A stretch of DNA of 34,634 bases from an uncultured Erysipelotrichaceae bacterium (GTDB lineage: Bacteria > Bacillota_I > Bacilli_A > RF39 > UBA660). This document shows, piece by piece, positions 28,244 through 34,235 of this stretch. The stretch spans positions 1-34,634 of the forward strand of contig CACWWC010000022.1 in assembly GCA_902764545.1 (NCBI GenBank), written 5' to 3'. The first letter of the stretch is position 1; every line of letters starts with the position of its first letter. The notes beneath the pieces are model-generated. The model searched no databases. It saw nothing but the letters and a program-made list of their open reading frames with translations, and was not told the origin of the DNA. The position numbers were made by a program, and so were the translations under genes.

Positions 28244-28272
28244 AAAATATATTCAAAAAGAATATATTTTTT
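28243..28272. terminator. Bidirectional terminator between convergent genes
   Basis: AAAAAATATATTC-AAAAA-GAATATATTTTTTT lies exactly between the plus-strand deacetylase and the minus-strand LOG-like gene, with T runs on both strands, so it can end both transcripts. Confidence 0.85.
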
Positions 28273-28868
28273 TACTTTATTAACTTTTTAAAATCAACTA
28301 TAATAGGCTCAAATCTATCTAAATAAGAACCATTACGAGTCAAAAAAGATGAATCCTTAGAATAAAGATTTTTCTCAATATAATTTAGATAATCAAATAC
28401 ATTATCACATACATAATAATATTCACTTATATTAAGAGATGCTAATAAATCAATCAATAAATCCCACTCATGATTAATATTAATTATCACGATAGGTTTG
28501 TCATGTTCAGCATTCTTTCTCTTATCAATAGCCCGCATAACTTCAGCAATAGTGCCGGAACCACCTTTCATAAAAATCATCGCATCACTAGTATTAATAA
28601 AGAAGTCACAAACATTACTTTGACAATCAAATTGTATAACGCAGCAAGAAACATCAGGTCGTCTATAAAGATCATTATAATATACTACAGAGCGTTCTAA
28701 ATCATCAATTTCATTATAAACTAAATAAGGATAGCCAAAACACCCATCAAATATAATATTATAATCTCTCTCATTTATAACCTCACCTAATTCTTTAGCA
28801 AAAAGAGCATATGATTTACTACTAACATTAGTAGAACCGCCAATAAATAATTTAATTTTTTCATACAT
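28272..28868 (-). CDS. LOG-like (TIGR00730-type) phosphoribohydrolase-fold protein
   Basis: LOG-family proteins are Rossmann-fold nucleoside-5'-monophosphate phosphoribohydrolases, often mislabelled lysine decarboxylases. The 198-residue product starts KLFIGGSTN and carries FMKGGSGTIAEV (residues 99-110), a variant of the PGGxGTxxE motif with Lys for Pro and the Glu kept. PIVIININHEWD and a C-terminal helical part follow as in the family. GGAGTGATTTT precedes the start at 28868. The missing Pro and a shorter central part make it a divergent member, so enzymatic activity is not assured. It follows leuA on the same strand, with 37 bases between. Confidence 0.7.
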   Translation of the reverse strand: MYEKIKLFIGGSTNVSSKSYALFAKELGEVINERDYNIIFDGCFGYPYLVYNEIDDLERSVVYYNDLYRRPDVSCCVIQFDCQSNVCDFFINTSDAMIFMKGGSGTIAEVMRAIDKRKNAEHDKPIVIININHEWDLLIDLLASLNISEYYYVCDNVFDYLNYIEKNLYSKDSSFLTRNGSYLDRFEPIIVDFKKLIK

Positions 28869-28905: not shown

Positions 28906-30075
28906 TTAATTGTTTTTGTTATATATTTTACACTTATGTTCTAAAATGATACTCCTAAATATTTCATCAGATATTTCCTTGTTATATTGAAAATATTCTT
29001 TAATAGAAAAAACAATATCATCAATCAAATAACCATCAGGATTAAAACCCAATTTTCTCATCTTATCAATTATTGCATTTTTTCCAGAATGAATTCCCAG
29101 AACGATATTATCATGAAAAATACCATACTTTTTAGGATCTATAATTTCATACGTCAAAGAATTATTTAAGACCCCTGCTTGATGAATACCCGCTTCATGA
29201 AGAAATGCATTACGTCCAACAATTGCTTTATTATTTTGAATAACAGAACCCGTAGCATCGCAAACAGCCTGACTTAACTTGCTAATCATTGTAGTATCAA
29301 CAAAAGACCTAACTTGGAAAAGCTTTCTTCTAGTATCAAGAGTTGCAACAACCTCCTCAAGCGCAGTATTACCAGCTCTTTCACCTATTCCATTTATTGT
29401 ACATTCAACCTGTCTTGCTCCACACTTAATAGCAGAAATGGAATTTGCAGTCGCCATTCCTAAATCATTATGGCAATGAACAGAAATACAGACATCTCCA
29501 AGTCTACTATAATTTTTTAACTCCATAATAAACTCAGCGAACTCAAAAGGCATCATTACCCCAACTGTATCAGGAATATTAATTGTAGTTGCTCCAGCGT
29601 CAATAGCAGTATTGATAGCCCGACATGCAAATACAAAATCCGTCCTAGTCGCATCCTCCAAAGAAAATTCTATATCATCACACTTGCTTTTAGCATAACT
29701 AACCATCTCACGAATTTTAGAAATAACTTGGTCTCTGCTCATTTTAAGTTTATCTCTCAAATGAATATCACTAGTAGCTATAAAAACATGAATTCTTTTC
29801 TTTTTAGCATTTTTAATTGCTTCATAAGCTAAATCAATATCCCTTTTATTACATCTAGCAAGAGATGTAACCGTAGAATAAGTACACACCTTACTAATTT
29901 CCTTTATAGCCTTAAAATCCTTCTCATTAGATGCAGCAAATCCAGCCTCAATCACATCAACTTTTGCCTCATCTAACATTTTAGCTATTTTAATTTTATC
30001 CTCCAAACTCATTGAACATCCAGGGGACTGTTCACCATCCCTAAGTGTTGTATCAAAAATAATTACATCTTCCAT
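28906..30075 (-). CDS. leuA: 2-isopropylmalate synthase, catalytic part only
   Basis: LeuA condenses acetyl-CoA with 2-oxoisovalerate, the committed step of leucine synthesis. The TIM-barrel signatures are complete: DTTLRDGEQSPGCS (residues 8-21), HCHNDLGMATAN, NGIGERAGNTALEE and EAGIHQAGVLN. The protein stops at 389 residues, whereas leucine-regulated LeuA has about 500-520; the C-terminal dimer domain that binds leucine for feedback is absent. Homocitrate synthase (NifV-like) or a related condensing enzyme is the alternative, but the leucine-rich leader peptide and attenuator upstream argue for leucine control. AAGGAGGATTTAT precedes the start. No leuB, leuC or leuD is in the window. Confidence 0.88.
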   Translation of the reverse strand: MEDVIIFDTTLRDGEQSPGCSMSLEDKIKIAKMLDEAKVDVIEAGFAASNEKDFKAIKEISKVCTYSTVTSLARCNKRDIDLAYEAIKNAKKKRIHVFIATSDIHLRDKLKMSRDQVISKIREMVSYAKSKCDDIEFSLEDATRTDFVFACRAINTAIDAGATTINIPDTVGVMMPFEFAEFIMELKNYSRLGDVCISVHCHNDLGMATANSISAIKCGARQVECTINGIGERAGNTALEEVVATLDTRRKLFQVRSFVDTTMISKLSQAVCDATGSVIQNNKAIVGRNAFLHEAGIHQAGVLNNSLTYEIIDPKKYGIFHDNIVLGIHSGKNAIIDKMRKLGFNPDGYLIDDIVFSIKEYFQYNKEISDEIFRSIILEHKCKIYNKNN

Positions 30076-30088
30076 ATAAATCCTCCTT

Positions 30089-30123
30089 AAAACAAAAGAC
30101 CTACTACAGCAAGTAATAGGTCT
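30089..30123 (-). terminator. Attenuator terminator of leuA
   Basis: On the minus strand AGACCTATTAC-TTGC-GTAGTAGGTCT-type stem (arms 30113-30123 and 30098-30108) followed by TTTTGTTTT, ending 14 bases before the leuA start. Its 5' arm (ACCTATTAC, 30113-30121) is perfectly complementary to GTAATAGGT right after the leader stop codon, so termination is conditional. Confidence 0.85.
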
Positions 30124-30193
30124 ATAATTATTTATTAATATTTAATATAATAACACAACAAATAAACCTATTACCTAGAGTCGTAGTAATAAG
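30113..30193 (-). promoter_or_regulatory. Leucine attenuator: competing RNA arms 1-2-3
   Basis: Arm 1 CTTATTAC (30186-30193) lies in the leucine codons of the leader peptide. Arm 2 GTAATAGGT (30166-30174) begins right after its stop codon. Arm 3 ACCTATTAC (30113-30121) is the terminator's 5' half. Arm 1 pairs with arm 2 (eight pairs, one G-U) and arm 2 pairs with arm 3 (nine pairs). A ribosome stalled for leucyl-tRNA covers arm 1, letting 2-3 form and preventing the terminator. A ribosome reaching the stop codon covers arm 2, letting 3-4 terminate. This is the classical amino-acid attenuation design. Confidence 0.85.
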
Positions 30194-30231
30194 TTAAGTA
30201 AGAGATTAGTTGTATTACTAACTATAAACAT
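30175..30231 (-). CDS. leuL: Leucine leader peptide (18 aa)
   Basis: AGGAGG stands five bases before ATG 30231. The peptide is MFIVSNTTNLLLNLLLRL, with seven leucines in the last nine residues, read by varied codons (CTC TTA CTT, TTA TTA CTA, CTC), and it ends at TAG 30175-30177. It has no function as a protein: its translation senses charged leucyl-tRNA and chooses between antiterminator and terminator upstream of leuA. It is too short for ordinary gene finding. The leucine run, the ribosome binding site and the matching RNA arms together make it convincing. Confidence 0.88.
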   Translation of the reverse strand: MFIVSNTTNLLLNLLLRL

Positions 30232-30251
30232 AAATCCTCCTAAATATAAAA

Positions 30252-30347
30252 TACGAAATCACTAAAGTGACTCCGTATAAATACGTGTAAGATTAAAATC
30301 CCTGTGTAGCTCGCTATGCTTATACACACTCACTAAATAAAAATTAA
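30252..30347 (-). promoter_or_regulatory. leuA promoter and 5' leader hairpin
   Basis: A promoter candidate TTAATT-N17-TATAAG occupies 30342-30347 and 30319-30324, giving a start near 30312. Between it and the leader-peptide ribosome binding site lies a strong hairpin TACGGAGTCAC-TTTA-GTGATTTCGTA (30252-30277) followed by TTTTATATTT. The hairpin could be a terminator for the upstream gene or part of the leader. Another inverted repeat (TGTGTA...TACACA, about 30303-30328) overlaps the -10 region. No T-box consensus is present. Confidence 0.45.
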
Positions 30348-30374
30348 CATATATACACATTAAAGTCAATAAAA

Positions 30375-32048
30375 TTATTTTTTTCTTCTACCAAACTTAC
30401 TAAAATGATGTACACTATTTTGTGCATCAAGTAAAGTTAACCATTCTGTAAAAGTAGAACAATTACTAATATCATATAATTGATCATTAAGTTTATCATC
30501 CATCTCTAAACTCTTCCTTACAAAATCACTAGTATAAGGATTATTATCAGCATAAGAACTTAAATTACTTTTTTCTCTATTATTATTCAAATAATCCAAA
30601 TACTTCTTATCAACATCGGAACAAAAAGCCTTCCTTTCATCACCATAAACAGATAAAAAATCTCTAATTAGCCTTAAGGCATTATCATCACTGTCATTTC
30701 CATAATATACATTAGCAAACATCATTATCTCATCAAGATGATTATATAGTAAGGTAGCACATCTATCATTAGTCGTAACTGCTCGAGAAATAGCTCTATC
30801 TAAATCTTTATGATTTGCTCTATATGAATTATCTTTAACTTTCTGATAGTAAGTTTCATAACTCTTCTCACTAAATCCATATGATAAAAAGTATCTCATA
30901 TAACTATTTAATAAATCATTCATACAATCATTACCATACTTAATTTTAAACTTATTAGTCGCAATATCAATACTAGCTTGTACTCTCTCATCAATAACAT
31001 CAGAACCATATATAGCTCCATATATTAAACTACTTTCATTTGATTTAGTACTATTTATAAAATCTATATTATCTGCTAATAACTTTTTATCATCCTGGAT
31101 TTCTTGAATTTTTCTATCAAAATAATTAGATATTTCATATAAAATAATATTATTAGCTGTATTCTGAGACTTCAATTCATCAATTTTATAATTCATTTCA
31201 CTCTTTATGTCACGAAGCTTACTCTCACCATATCCCTCTTTTTGAAGTACTGATAGATAATCTTTAATACGTTGTTCTATATCAAAAGGTTTTCCAACTT
31301 TAAGATTATATGACTCGTAAGCATCAGAAATATCTTTTTTTGAAAAATCTGGATTACTTTTCATATACTCTATTTCTCTTTCAAGAGCATCTTTATATTT
31401 TTTTATTTCATCGCTTTTTCTTTCAATAAAATGATTAATCTTATATAAAATATCCACGTCAGGTAAAGAAGTGGTAACTTCTTTTTTTTCTCTTCCACTT
31501 TCAATTATTTTTAAGCATTGATCTCTAAACTCTTCAATCTTAGCATCATAATAACCTAAATCTCTTAAACTATTTAATCCCTTTTCAATTTCTAAATTAA
31601 AATCAACGGGCATTCCATTTTTATAATCAAATAATCTTAATAATTCATCTTTTCTTTCCTTTTTTTCATCATCAGATAAATCCAAAGAATCAATATATTT
31701 CATTTCATAACCAAGCATTCTTAAAGCATTATCCATAGAATCTTTGGCAGGAACAAAAATGAAAAATCTCACTTCTTTTATTATATAATCATCATCTTTA
31801 CCTTCTTTTTTATACTTTTCAATATACTCTAATCCTTTTTTTCTAAATTCTTCAATTTTAAGTTCATGAAAGCCAAGTTCAGCAATCTCCGCCAACATTT
31901 TTTCTAACGCTTTTTTACAAAAAGAATCATCACTAATCACTAACTTTTCTTCAGCTATTACTTCTCTTTTCTCAACAATAGCAGAATCAACCATGCTTTC
32001 TTCTTCACTCTTATTTTTTTTCTTTTTAAACCTGTCAAATAATCCCAT
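30375..32048 (-). CDS. Helical repeat protein of unknown function (557 aa)
   Basis: The family is not recognised. The N-terminus MGLFDRFKKKKNK is a short amphipathic, basic start like that of proteins that touch the membrane (FtsY begins similarly), but no SRP GTPase follows. Three degenerate repeats are visible at about residues 44-80, 152-188 and 257-295. Each has a helix, a G-[FY]-x-[ED/E]-x-K-[IL] turn and a helix (ELGFHELKIEEF, DLGYYDAKIEEF, KEGYGESKLRDI), joined by long charged helices. The C-terminal half is helical with several Tyr-rich segments. Cytoplasmic location is likely. AAGGAGGAATT precedes the start at 32048. Both neighbours are unrelated. Confidence 0.72.
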   Translation of the reverse strand: MGLFDRFKKKKNKSEEESMVDSAIVEKREVIAEEKLVISDDSFCKKALEKMLAEIAELGFHELKIEEFRKKGLEYIEKYKKEGKDDDYIIKEVRFFIFVPAKDSMDNALRMLGYEMKYIDSLDLSDDEKKERKDELLRLFDYKNGMPVDFNLEIEKGLNSLRDLGYYDAKIEEFRDQCLKIIESGREKKEVTTSLPDVDILYKINHFIERKSDEIKKYKDALEREIEYMKSNPDFSKKDISDAYESYNLKVGKPFDIEQRIKDYLSVLQKEGYGESKLRDIKSEMNYKIDELKSQNTANNIILYEISNYFDRKIQEIQDDKKLLADNIDFINSTKSNESSLIYGAIYGSDVIDERVQASIDIATNKFKIKYGNDCMNDLLNSYMRYFLSYGFSEKSYETYYQKVKDNSYRANHKDLDRAISRAVTTNDRCATLLYNHLDEIMMFANVYYGNDSDDNALRLIRDFLSVYGDERKAFCSDVDKKYLDYLNNNREKSNLSSYADNNPYTSDFVRKSLEMDDKLNDQLYDISNCSTFTEWLTLLDAQNSVHHFSKFGRRKK

Positions 32049-32266: not shown

Positions 32267-33127
32267 ATGAAAAACACTGAAAAGAATAAAATAAAATGGG
32301 TTGAAAAAGTTAGATACACATTAGAATTAGGAGGTAAAAGTAACAGAACTTTTGATAATTACAAATCACATATTAATAGATTCTTAAATTATTATGAAGA
32401 ATCTATAGAAATTAATAAATTATCTGAAGATGATGTTGTTGATTATTTTAGAAAACAATATATTGATTTAAATAGCTGTTCTTCAAGTTTAAATGTTGGT
32501 ATATGATCTATAAGATTTTTATATTCTGTTTGTTTTAATCGTAAATTAAACAATGATTTATTACCATCTACTAAATTAAGTAAGAAAATGCCAACTATAA
32601 TACCTAAACAATTATTTTTAAAAATCTTTAATGAGGAAACTTGCCTAAAACATAAATGTTGGTTAATTTTAGCTTTTTGTTCAGGATTAAGAGTTGATGA
32701 AGTTGCTACTTTAAGAATAGAAAATATTTATCCGAATGAACATAAACTTAAAATTTTAGGAAAAAGAAATAAAGAAAGATATACTATTCTTCCTGACATT
32801 GTTACTAAGTTTTTAAGATTATACTGTAAAGAAAATCATATTACAGATAAACAAGGATATCTTTTTATATCACAATATGATAATCAAGAACATATTAATT
32901 CTAAAAGTATCATTAATTATTTTACTACCTTGAAAGTTGCTTATAATTTAGATAAAAATATTTCATTTCATTCTTTACGTCACTCATTCGCAACTTATTA
33001 TTTGATGAATGGTGGCAATATTATTACTTTAAAATCTATGTTAGGTCATTCTCATTTAGATACAACTAATAGATATCTACATATTGCTCAGAATTTCAAT
33101 AATTTAGAAGGTATTAAATATGTCTAG
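32267..33127 (+). pseudogene. Tyrosine recombinase, interrupted by TGA
   Basis: Tyrosine recombinases cut and rejoin DNA through a covalent Tyr link. Both halves are in one frame: an N-terminal SAM-like core-binding domain (NRTFDNYKSHINRFLNYYEE), then TGA at 32504-32506, then the catalytic domain. The catalytic residues remain: R in FCSGLRVDE, K in GKRNKERY, HSLRHSF, LGHSHL and the nucleophile in TNRYLHI. The stop falls between NVGI and SIRFLY, where family members read through; a CGA to TGA change would explain it. TGG encodes Trp elsewhere, so recoding is unlikely. The start at 32267 follows GGGAG. The gene's stop codon overlaps the transposase start (ATGTCTAG). Probably inactive, unless the stop codon is read through. 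Confidence 0.85.
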
Positions 33128-34235
33128 TTATACCATTCAAGATATATTTAAAACTTATGCTCCAGACTACATTAAAAAACATAAATTATCTAAAGAACAA
33201 TGGAAAGTTTATAATGCCATCAGGAATTGTGGCACTAAAGAATTAGGCTTTCACATTTGTACATGTGAAGAATGTGGTGAAGAATACTTCGGATATAATT
33301 CATGCCGTAATAGACATTGTCTTATGTGTCAGAACTATGCTAGAGAAAAATGGATACAAAAAGAATCTAGTTATTTACTAGATTCTAGATATTTTCACAT
33401 AATTACTACTGTTCCTTATGAATTAAATGAAATATTTATGTACAACCAAAAAATATGTTACAACATTTTATTTAAATCTACAAGTGAAACAATATTATAA
33501 TTATGCGAAGATCCTAAATGGTTAGGTGCTAAAGTTGGAATCACTTCTATACTTCACACTTGGGGTCAAACTTTGGAATTCCATCCTCATATTCATTCTA
33601 TCGTTACTGGTGGTGGACTTAAAAATAATCATTGGGTACCATGTAATAAAGATTATCTTTTTAAAATTCAAGTTCTTGGTTCTTTATTTAGAGGAAAGTT
33701 TCTATCATATTTAAAACATGAATTTAATAATTTAAATGTTGATTTTAAAGACATTAAATCATTTAATAAATTCTTAGAACCTCTATATAATAAGACTTGG
33801 ATTACTTATATTGAACCACCTAAAGGTAAAACAGAAAATGTTATTGAATATGTTGGTAGATACTCTTTTAGAGTTGCTATTTCTAATGAAAGAATCAAAA
33901 ATGTTGAAGATGGTAAAGTAACTTTTGAATATAAAGATTATAAAGATAATTCTAAAATAAAACTTATGACTATAACAGCCGAAGAGTTTATTAGAAGATT
34001 TCTTCTTCATGTGCTTCCAGATAATTTTACTAAAATTAAACATTATGGATTACTTTCTAATAGAAATAAAAAGAACAATATTAGATTTTGTAGATTACTT
34101 ATTTCTAGAATATTAACCAATGAATTTGTATCTACAATATCTAGAAAATTTCATGAGTTCAAATGTGAGAAATGTGGTTCAACTAATTTAACTTATTCAT
34201 TTAATTATGATATTAATCGACTCTGCTTAGATTAA
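33120..34235 (+). pseudogene. IS91-family HUH (Y2) transposase, interrupted by TAA
   Basis: IS91-type transposases move DNA by rolling-circle transposition. The N-terminal part has the zinc-binding region CTCEECGEEYFGYNSCRNRHC..C and runs to LFKSTSETIL, where TAA (33498-33500) breaks the frame. The same frame then resumes with LCEDPKWLGAK and ITSILHTWGQTLEFHPHIHS. The HUH motif is HPHIHS and the twin tyrosines are in EYVGRYSFR. A C-terminal C-x2-C element (CEKCGS) and the end at 34235 complete about 371 codons, normal for the family. The stop most likely replaced a Glu codon (GAA to TAA). With the recombinase gene in front it formed a two-gene mobile element that is now decaying. Confidence 0.88.

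What the first reader, a model, noticed from the sequence alone, without database searches (positions are those of the whole stretch)
30089..30231. Leader-peptide attenuation of leuA in a low-GC Gram-positive-type genome
Seen: an 18-codon peptide with seven leucines, preceded by AGGAGG, followed by four RNA arms that pair in the mutually exclusive way of the enterobacterial leu and trp attenuators, and a U-rich terminator just before leuA. Known: Bacillota mostly use T-box leaders for branched-chain amino acid genes; ribosome-mediated attenuators are rarer there. Inference: leucine supply in this lineage is sensed by ribosome stalling. The geometry (arm 1 in the Leu codons, arm 2 abutting the stop codon) is unusually clean.
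Basis: partly seen in the sequence, partly recalled or inferred. Interest (0 to 1): 0.82.

Follow-up and report, generated by a model that had tools for sequence, protein, structure and literature searches.

The report
Tandem RNA switches before orphan leuA
In a small bacterial genome with no recognisable genes for the later steps of leucine synthesis, the lone first-step gene leuA is preceded by two RNA elements in a row: a leucine-rich mini-gene predicted to sense leucine shortage by ribosome stalling, and a conserved folded RNA, without a match in the Rfam library, that likely acts as a second on/off switch.

Summary
An 18-codon ORF with 7 Leu codons (30231-30175), preceded by AGGAGG, is followed by arms that can pair 1:2, 2:3 or 3:4 and by a terminator just upstream of leuA. 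A Leu-rich leader with such arms precedes leuA in 15 of 15 orthologues with a readable start, from 12 genera of one family, without a constant neighbouring gene. Rare CTC is 0.6% of Leu codons in window genes but 2 of 7 in the leader. The 14 leuA genomes tested also carry 7-13 T-boxes each, so leuA is an exception in a T-box lineage. Leucine-dependent stalling is the likely mechanism (untested).

First, leuA is an orphan: aconitase-family (leuC) genes 0 of 145 family genomes, leuB-type 0 of 9, ilvD 0 of 14. Second, a four-way-junction RNA (30333-30267) with its own overlapping terminator precedes the attenuator here and in three other leuA loci. It occurs in 43 of 291 family genomes, often before transporter or acetyltransferase genes, covaries strongly, and matches no Rfam family. 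The attenuator is a known kind; its tandem partner and orphan target are the new part.

The parts
30341..30369 (-). possible promoter: TTGACT, 17-nt spacer, TAATTT (weak -10)
   Evidence: read by eye; not listed by the consensus scan of that region; a loose TTGAC-type promoter pattern was matched upstream of this copy and of 44 of 65 copies of the element in all, one copy not evaluated
30267..30333 (-). conserved four-way-junction RNA ('R1 element'): GUGAG-P2-GGG-P3-UACACG-P4-CGGAGUCAC
   Evidence: CM hit 80.8 bits, this copy being one of three in the model; 64 copies, 95.6% of cells paired, 246 both-side changes against 82 in shuffles; structure recovered from alignments not fitted to the model; no Rfam match
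30251..30278 (-). intrinsic terminator of the R1 element; its 5' strand contains CGGAGUCAC, so it excludes P1 and P4
   Evidence: the same overlap in 63 of 65 copies
30236..30241 (-). Shine-Dalgarno AGGAGG of the leader peptide
30175..30231 (-). leader peptide ORF MFIVSNTTNLLLNLLLRL, stop TAG
   Evidence: homologous leaders in 15 of 15 assessable leuA orthologues
30186..30195 (-). arm 1 (AACUUAUUAC, inside the Leu codons)
30163..30174 (-). arm 2 (GUAAUAGGUUUA, directly after the stop codon)
30113..30123 (-). arm 3 (AGACCUAUUAC)
30097..30107 (-). arm 4 (GUAGUAGGUCU)
30089..30096 (-). U-rich tract of the terminator (UUUGUUUU)
28906..30075 (-). leuA: 2-isopropylmalate synthase-like, 389 aa, HMGL-like plus HCS_D2 domains, no C-terminal regulatory domain

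Best explanation
The 5' leader of leuA (minus strand, 30333-30076) carries two conserved terminator-bearing RNA elements in series, a four-way-junction RNA and then a leucine-codon leader peptide with mutually exclusive arms, and it is predicted to let RNA polymerase reach leuA only when both terminators are avoided, the second one through ribosome stalling at the leucine codons. Shown by sequence and comparison: the ORF, its Leu codons, the three alternative helices, both terminator hairpins, and their conservation with compensatory change. Inferred: with little charged tRNA-Leu a ribosome would stall over arm 1, so 2:3 forms and transcription continues; with enough it would reach the stop codon and cover arm 2, so the 3:4 terminator forms. 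Inferred with less certainty: an unknown ligand or factor stabilises P1/P4 of the upstream element, which would hold the CGGAGUCAC strand out of its terminator (an ON switch). LeuA would then be made under leucine shortage plus that second signal. Since the later pathway genes are not found, its product would be used in some other way, or by unrecognised enzymes.
For: Leader: SD, 7 Leu of 18 codons, 9 of 20,000 shuffles, CTC enrichment. Leader present in 15 of 15 assessable orthologues, including G518, found after the models were built. Arms: 93-100% of cells paired for the three helices in subtype I (5 of its 6 sequences aligned), 91-94% in subtype II (9 sequences); both-side changes in 3:4 exceed shuffles (1/500 and 0/500 as high). 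At one position G062 has A, U, A, U in arms 1, 2, 3, 4 where the other four subtype I sequences have C, G, C, G, so all three alternative helices keep their pair through one coordinated change. No neighbour of leuA is shared by more than 3 of 16 genomes (17 stretches), so leader and gene stay together while their surroundings change. Model R2 found only leuA leaders plus one false positive among 291 genomes. R1 element: 64 copies, covariation 0.492 against 0.189 shuffled and at most 0.113 slid; terminator overlap in 63 of 65; next to the attenuator in G000, G014, G412 and G518.
Against: No expression data. Two of the six helix tests are not clearly above shuffles: 2:3 of subtype II (194/500) and 1:2 of subtype I (37/500). 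In 4 of 15 orthologues the leader frame runs through the core of arm 2, so release at the stop codon cannot mask arm 2 there in the simple way. The R1 element was not found in 11 of 15 leuA leaders (E<=1), so it is an added input, not a core part. Its ligand and the direction of its response are unknown. Without leuB, leuC and ilvD homologues the benefit of making LeuA under leucine shortage is unexplained.
Confidence: 0.8

Rival explanations
1. The leucine attenuator is real and acts alone; the upstream R1 hairpin is only the 3' terminator of the preceding 557-aa gene (30375-32048).
For: The hairpin at 30278-30251 lies about 100 nt after that gene's stop codon on the same strand. 11 of 15 leuA leaders have no R1 match.
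Against: The element is a 97-position RNA with strong covariation, not a bare hairpin; 64 copies in 50 loci, 14 loci with more than one copy, an ORF downstream on the same strand in 49 of 50; G000, G014 and G412 have it before the Leu leader although their upstream genes differ (not examined for G518); a loose promoter pattern precedes 44 of 65 copies.
Confidence: 0.15
2. leuA and its leader are decaying relics of a lost leucine pathway, with no present function.
For: leuC, leuB and ilvD homologues not found; leuA sporadic (15 of 386 family genomes at E<=1e-40); broken or degenerate copies in G454 and G362.
Against: 14 intact copies of 385-395 aa, 12 of 14 with all five catalytic or substrate motifs tested, the other 13 at 55-66% identity to the window copy; the leader peptide is kept in all of them and arm changes are compensated. 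No dN/dS was computed.
Confidence: 0.07
3. The cells do make leucine from LeuA's product, with a non-homologous isomerase and dehydrogenase; the attenuator then is ordinary end-product control.
For: Leucine-specific control fits end-product control best; LeuA keeps the IPMS motifs and lacks the C-terminal domain that usually gives leucine feedback, so the attenuator could be the only leucine brake.
Against: No aconitase-family protein in 145 family genomes and no Iso_dh in 9; ilvD is also missing in 14 of 14, so 2-ketoisovalerate would have to come from valine or from outside; leuA is not next to any constant partner gene.
Confidence: 0.3
4. The region is a T-box or another known riboswitch, and the Leu-rich ORF is incidental.
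For: Such genomes hold 7-13 T-boxes each and BCAA synthesis in Clostridia was reported to be T-box regulated (PMC2494555, passages read).
Against: No T-box or other cis-regulatory Rfam match even at E<=10 in 30040-30420; Leu leader conserved in 15 of 15; rare Leu codons enriched.
Confidence: 0.02

Closest known systems
Enterobacterial leu and trp leader-peptide attenuators (recalled from general knowledge)
   Same: SD plus short ORF with a run of cognate codons, arms 1:2 / 2:3 / 3:4, intrinsic terminator before the first biosynthetic gene, rare Leu codons
   Different: no Rfam match here; the target is a lone leuA, not leuABCD; a second RNA element stands in front in 4 of 15 leaders
Staphylococcus aureus ilv-leu attenuator (PMC5794164, section 9 and passages read)
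   Same: leucine-responsive leader peptide in Bacillota, proposed after a T-box had been considered and not supported there
   Different: 26-aa peptide with Ile and Leu codons before ilvD of a full operon; its proposed antiterminator pairs with the U tract, not the classical 2:3 arrangement
LEU element of Actinobacteria (PMC1262725, passages read)
   Same: Leu-run ORF upstream of leuA
   Different: pseudoknot with a base stem that pairs the Leu codons with the leuA SD; other attenuator parts missing, and classical attenuation was judged unlikely there
T-box leaders of BCAA genes in Bacillales and Clostridia (PMC2494555, passages read)
   Same: same job, sensing amino-acid charging
   Different: senses tRNA directly without a peptide; no match here
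Guanidine-IV (mepA) riboswitch (PMC11611296 and PMC12186494, passages read), compared with the R1 element only
   Same: ON-type transcriptional switch with an overlapping terminator, upstream of exporters among other genes
   Different: guanidine-IV joins two loops, one within the terminator stem; in R1 the terminator loop is not conserved and the architecture is a four-way junction. No sequence comparison was made because no sequence was found in the text

Membership tests
Leader-peptide (ribosome-mediated) transcription attenuator | translatable short ORF with a Shine-Dalgarno | tested here: met
   AGGAGG, 4-nt spacer, ATG; Shine-Dalgarno matches also before most orthologous leaders, weak in G062, G220 and G518
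Leader-peptide (ribosome-mediated) transcription attenuator | over-representation of codons for the cognate amino acid, often rare ones | tested here: met
   7 Leu of 18; CTC 2 of 7 against 0.6% in 16 larger window ORFs; Leu run in 15 of 15
Leader-peptide (ribosome-mediated) transcription attenuator | mutually exclusive 1:2, 2:3 and 3:4 helices | tested here: met
   kept across orthologues
Leader-peptide (ribosome-mediated) transcription attenuator | compensatory change in the antiterminator (2:3) | tested here: inconclusive
   subtype I above shuffles (score 3/500); subtype II not (194/500)
Leader-peptide (ribosome-mediated) transcription attenuator | intrinsic terminator upstream of the regulated gene | tested here: met
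   11 pairs, 4 GC, U-rich tail
Leader-peptide (ribosome-mediated) transcription attenuator | read-through rises on starvation for the cognate amino acid | not testable with these tools
   needs an experiment
T-box riboswitch (RF00230) | match to the covariance model | tested here: not met
   (no T-box match up to E 10), although 11 T-box matches are found elsewhere in the same genome
Any Rfam 15 family, for the R1 element | match at the gathering score | tested here: not met
   0 in the window and 0 in 20 R1 loci (20 of the 51 R1 loci held); E<=10 scan of the window copy gave no cis-regulatory family, and of the G014 copy only freshwater-2 at 20 bits against a gathering score of 49.9
Riboswitch (general), for the R1 element | conserved covarying aptamer-like domain overlapping an expression platform | tested here: met
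Riboswitch (general), for the R1 element | direct ligand binding | not testable with these tools
   ligand unknown
Guanidine-IV riboswitch, for the R1 element | kissing loop between two loops, one in the terminator hairpin | tested here: inconclusive
   terminator loops vary in length and sequence; no guanidine-IV sequence available to align
2-isopropylmalate synthase (LeuA) | catalytic motifs and best family score | tested here: met
   best NCBIfam score NF002086 at 525 bits, just under its cut-off of 532; nifV 322, cimA 204; motifs
2-isopropylmalate synthase (LeuA) | C-terminal leucine-feedback domain | tested here: not met
   389 aa, profile match ends at 381-387 of 494-516 for the four best models; no such Pfam domain; 385-395 aa in 14 of 14

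The most novel reading that the evidence does not exclude
The R1 element is a new riboswitch class. In four leuA leaders it is wired in series with a leucine attenuator to make a two-input gate on an orphan 2-isopropylmalate synthase, whose product serves not leucine synthesis but another purpose, such as a secreted, exchanged or signalling metabolite made when leucine runs short.
Probability: 0.35. Interest if true: 0.85.

Novelty: new variant of a known kind. Interest (0 to 1): 0.66.

Why it matters
It gives a clean, family-wide case of classical leucine attenuation inside a T-box lineage. It poses a testable puzzle: why would a cell without the rest of the pathway induce LeuA when leucine is short? 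And it exposes a frequent structured RNA (43 of 291 family genomes, more than one copy in 14 of 50 loci, upstream of ABC transporters, GNAT acetyltransferases, a nucleotidyltransferase and leuA) that matches no Rfam family and could be a new riboswitch class. The tandem arrangement makes the two signals separable in one reporter.

Tried and rejected
Plus-strand reading: the plus-strand fold is unremarkable (z -1.2); the leader is on the minus strand. T-box or known riboswitch: no Rfam hit at gathering scores; weak hits were snoRNA, miRNA or similar families, plus RefA9 and freshwater-2, all far below their gathering scores. Guanidine-IV for the R1 element: considered from memory, compared through two papers, not supported by architecture but not excluded. 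Mobile repeat for R1: disfavoured because an ORF follows on the same strand in 49 of 50 loci. Conserved operon partner of leuA: none shared by more than 3 of 16 genomes (G518 not included). Other genes under the same leader: model R2 in 291 genomes gave 7 leuA leaders and one hit in G198 that has no Leu run and precedes another gene; R2 was built from subtype II and, under the strict filters used there, did not report the window's own genome at E<=0.01, so it would miss subtype I-like leaders. Named-organism comparison: the best genome-contig hits (capped at 80) are 59% identical or less; a scan of 23 of those 80 loci for Leu-rich SD ORFs was mixed and was not pursued. Viral-contig pattern scan: one hit, not confirmed by the model. 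Phages and plasmids: no match to one R1 copy.

Rows dropped before counts: weak HMGL-family hits (best E 2.6e-9 to 0.001) were taken as other enzymes; G362 (46% identity, DGEQ motif lost, no leader seen by eye), G397 (fragment at a contig end) and G454 (decayed, leader not assessed) are outside the 15 of 15. In one search G220 failed in the script (its leader was then located), the terminator chosen for G381 was wrong and the arm assignment for G324, G381 and G279 is unreliable; the alignments replace it. G518 was found after the alignments and is not in them. In one search one copy (L115) was not evaluated because it reads GAAGTC, and L171 had no terminator. In a draft I had described the G062 change as a shortening; one search shows it is a substitution, and this report says so.

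Full report
What is there. The feature is on the minus strand upstream of leuA (28906-30075). Reading 5' to 3': a possible promoter (TTGACT at 30369-30364), a structured element (30333-30267) with a terminator (30278-30251), then AGGAGG (30241-30236), the leader ORF MFIVSNTTNLLLNLLLRL (30231-30175), arm 2 directly after the stop, arms 3 and 4 (30123-30113, 30107-30097), a U-rich tail, and the leuA ribosome site. The fold of the attenuator stretch is better than all 200 shuffles (z -3.7).

Chance. An ATG ORF with a Shine-Dalgarno match, at most 25 codons and at least 7 Leu arose in 9 of 20,000 dinucleotide shuffles of the region; of 10 such-preceded ORFs of 10-40 codons in the whole window only this one and one 10-aa ORF with 3 Leu are at least 30% Leu. 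CTC makes up 0.6% of Leu codons in 16 of the window's larger ORFs but 2 of 7 here.

Orthologues. Protein searches over the genus (39 genomes), the family (243 and 386 genomes) and the order (385 genomes) found leuA only sporadically (for example 15 of 386 at E<=1e-40). Of the copies found, 15 have an intact start and readable upstream DNA: G000, G014, G412, G062, G220, G518 (subtype I) and G143, G234, G324, G146, G381, G067, G279, G346, G206 (subtype II), from 12 genera. All 15 have a Leu-rich leader ORF followed by a terminator-like hairpin (hairpin by script in 13, of which G381's was misplaced, and by eye in G220, G381 and G518). The leaders share LLxLLLRL in subtype I and LLLAL followed by L or F in subtype II. 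G362 (46% identity, catalytic DGEQ lost) has no leader; G397 is a fragment; G454 is decayed.

Arms. In subtype I (5 of 6 sequences, A4) the helices 1:2, 2:3 and 3:4 are paired in 96%, 93% and 100% of cells; in subtype II (9 sequences, A5) in 94%, 91% and 93%; partners slid by 1-3 columns give 24-64%. The covariation score was reached by 37, 3 and 1 of 500 shuffles in subtype I and by 4, 194 and 0 of 500 in subtype II. So four of six tests are clearly above shuffles, 1:2 of subtype I is borderline, and 2:3 of subtype II is not above: five of its 14 pairs never vary, four vary on one side only, three depart only by losing the pair, two change on both sides. The two subtypes have different arm sequences and the same layout. 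At one position G062 has A, U, A, U in arms 1-4 where the other four have C, G, C, G, so the three alternative helices all keep the pair. Against a strict textbook geometry: in G220, G324, G279 and G518 the leader frame runs through the core of arm 2 (by eye), so masking of arm 2 there would have to happen in passing rather than at a stop codon that abuts it.

Specificity. A model of the subtype II attenuator searched in 291 family genomes found 7 leuA leaders and one false positive; it did not report the window's own subtype I leader at E<=0.01, so this says little about subtype I. No neighbour of leuA is shared by more than 3 of 16 genomes (17 stretches), so leader and gene form a stand-alone cassette. 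The same genomes use T-boxes freely: 14 of 14 tested have 7-13 matches at E<=0.001, 11 in the window's genome.

An orphan gene. Aconitase-family proteins (which include LeuC) are not found in 9 of 9 leuA-bearing genomes or in 145 of 145 family genomes, Iso_dh (which includes LeuB) not in 9 of 9 and ILVD_EDD not in 14 of 14; each of these searches rang in 14 of 14 control genomes. The genomes are draft assemblies (the window's is 93.5% complete), but loss by chance in all of them is not plausible. LeuA itself looks functional: closest to 2-isopropylmalate synthases by NCBIfam and by sequence of solved structures (3rmj), 385-395 aa in 14 of 14, all five motifs in 12 of 14 (G412 lacks exact HCHND, G346 exact NIPDT). 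It lacks the C-terminal regulatory domain, so the attenuator may be the main leucine control (inference). What the product is for is not known.

The second RNA. Upstream of the leader in G000, G014 and G412 lies the same element, and G518, found later, has it too; the other 11 leuA leaders gave no match at E<=1. A model from three copies found it in 43 of 291 family genomes; 64 copies in 50 loci were collected, 14 loci with more than one copy. Consensus: GUGAG, P2 with an inner hairpin, GGG-P3-CCU, ACACG, P4, CGGAGUCAC, where GUGA pairs with UCAC (P1). Covariation is strong (95.6% of cells paired; 246 both-side changes against a shuffled mean of 82; score 0.492 against 0.189 shuffled and at most 0.113 slid). 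That alignment was fitted to the model; two MAFFT alignments not fitted to it give the same four-way junction (energies -31.1 and -26.7 against means of -5.1 and -3.2 for 20 column shuffles each). In 63 of 65 copies a terminator-like hairpin uses the GGAGUCAC strand, so it excludes P1 and P4; of the other two, G412's copy was not evaluated by the script because it reads GAAGTC, and L171 has none. No shuffle control was run for this overlap. Among the first two ORFs downstream in the 50 loci are an ABC ATPase in 18, an ABC-2 permease in 15, a GNAT cluster of 8 proteins and a second one of 5, and leuA in 3; 31 of 50 loci have a transporter or acetyltransferase gene there (the clusters are named after scanned representatives). 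Pfam on 10 chosen proteins gave ABC_tran, ABC2_membrane_6, GNAT (three proteins), NTP_transf_2, Ham1 plus NUDIX, a methyltransferase and PNP_UDP_1; one had no match. No Rfam family matches. Literature searches: one search listed no paper; one search listed two, of which PMC11109978 was read in passages and one section without meeting this motif, but its motif alignments are in supplements that I could not see. Only the held open-licence library was searched. The element behaves like an ON-type riboswitch or a related transcription switch (inference from anatomy); its ligand is unknown.

Mechanism. Best reading: two terminators in series. The second is set by leucine through ribosome stalling; the first by an unknown signal. 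What is shown is anatomy and conservation; the responses are inferred. Known relatives: enterobacterial leu and trp attenuators (recalled), the S. aureus ilv-leu attenuator (PMC5794164, section 9 and passages read), the actinobacterial LEU element (PMC1262725, passages read) and the Corynebacterium ilvB uORF motif (PMC11109978, section 13 read). Tandem attenuators as such are known (Salmonella mgtCBR, PMC3641672, seen only in the listing).

Verdict. The attenuator alone is a new member of a known kind; the tandem with an uncatalogued RNA and the orphan target make it a new variant of real interest.

Noticed in passing
window 30242-30337 (-), and loci L125-L172, L198: Uncatalogued four-way-junction RNA with overlapping terminator in 43 of 291 family genomes, more than one copy in 14 of 50 loci, upstream of ABC transporters, GNATs and a nucleotidyltransferase as well as leuA.
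   Followed up: yes
L156 (G000:C4:58000-61700): The window's own genome has two more copies of this element, 34 nt apart, upstream of an ABC ATPase and an ABC-2 permease.
   Followed up: partly
L121:819-1129 (-) and L120:6026-6342 (-): In G206 and G346 a second Leu-rich ORF (ending LLLLLSPLGGEI / LLLFLSPSGESK, with a CCCC..GGGG hairpin inside it and no U tract) lies between the first attenuator and leuA: two Leu leaders in tandem, the second perhaps acting on translation.
   Followed up: no
L199 (G454) and L123 (G362): A decayed leuA in G454, and a LeuA-like protein in G362 with the DGEQ catalytic motif lost and no leader.
   Followed up: partly
window 32588-34235 (+): A XerC/XerD-like tyrosine recombinase of 179 aa followed by two ORFs that match successive parts of an IS91-family transposase profile (33120-33500 and 33573-34235), about 2.5 kb from leuA near the contig end; leuA may sit next to mobile DNA.
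   Followed up: no
window 30375-32048 (-): 557-aa ORF directly upstream of the leader with no Pfam or NCBIfam match at E<=0.001.
   Followed up: no
L006 about 171 nt and L016 about 217 nt upstream of the leuA match: leuA of two Synergistaceae MAGs also has an SD-preceded Leu-rich short ORF with a GTG start (MYTTNFTSTLALLLGTADSPGVL, MKRFYNNNLALALLDADSDLRDE), so Leu leaders before leuA may be wider than this family.
   Followed up: no
window 28272-28868 (-): LOG-family-like Rossmann protein (weak TIGR00730 and Lysine_decarbox match) directly downstream of leuA in the window; no homologue in the other leuA neighbourhoods compared.
   Followed up: partly
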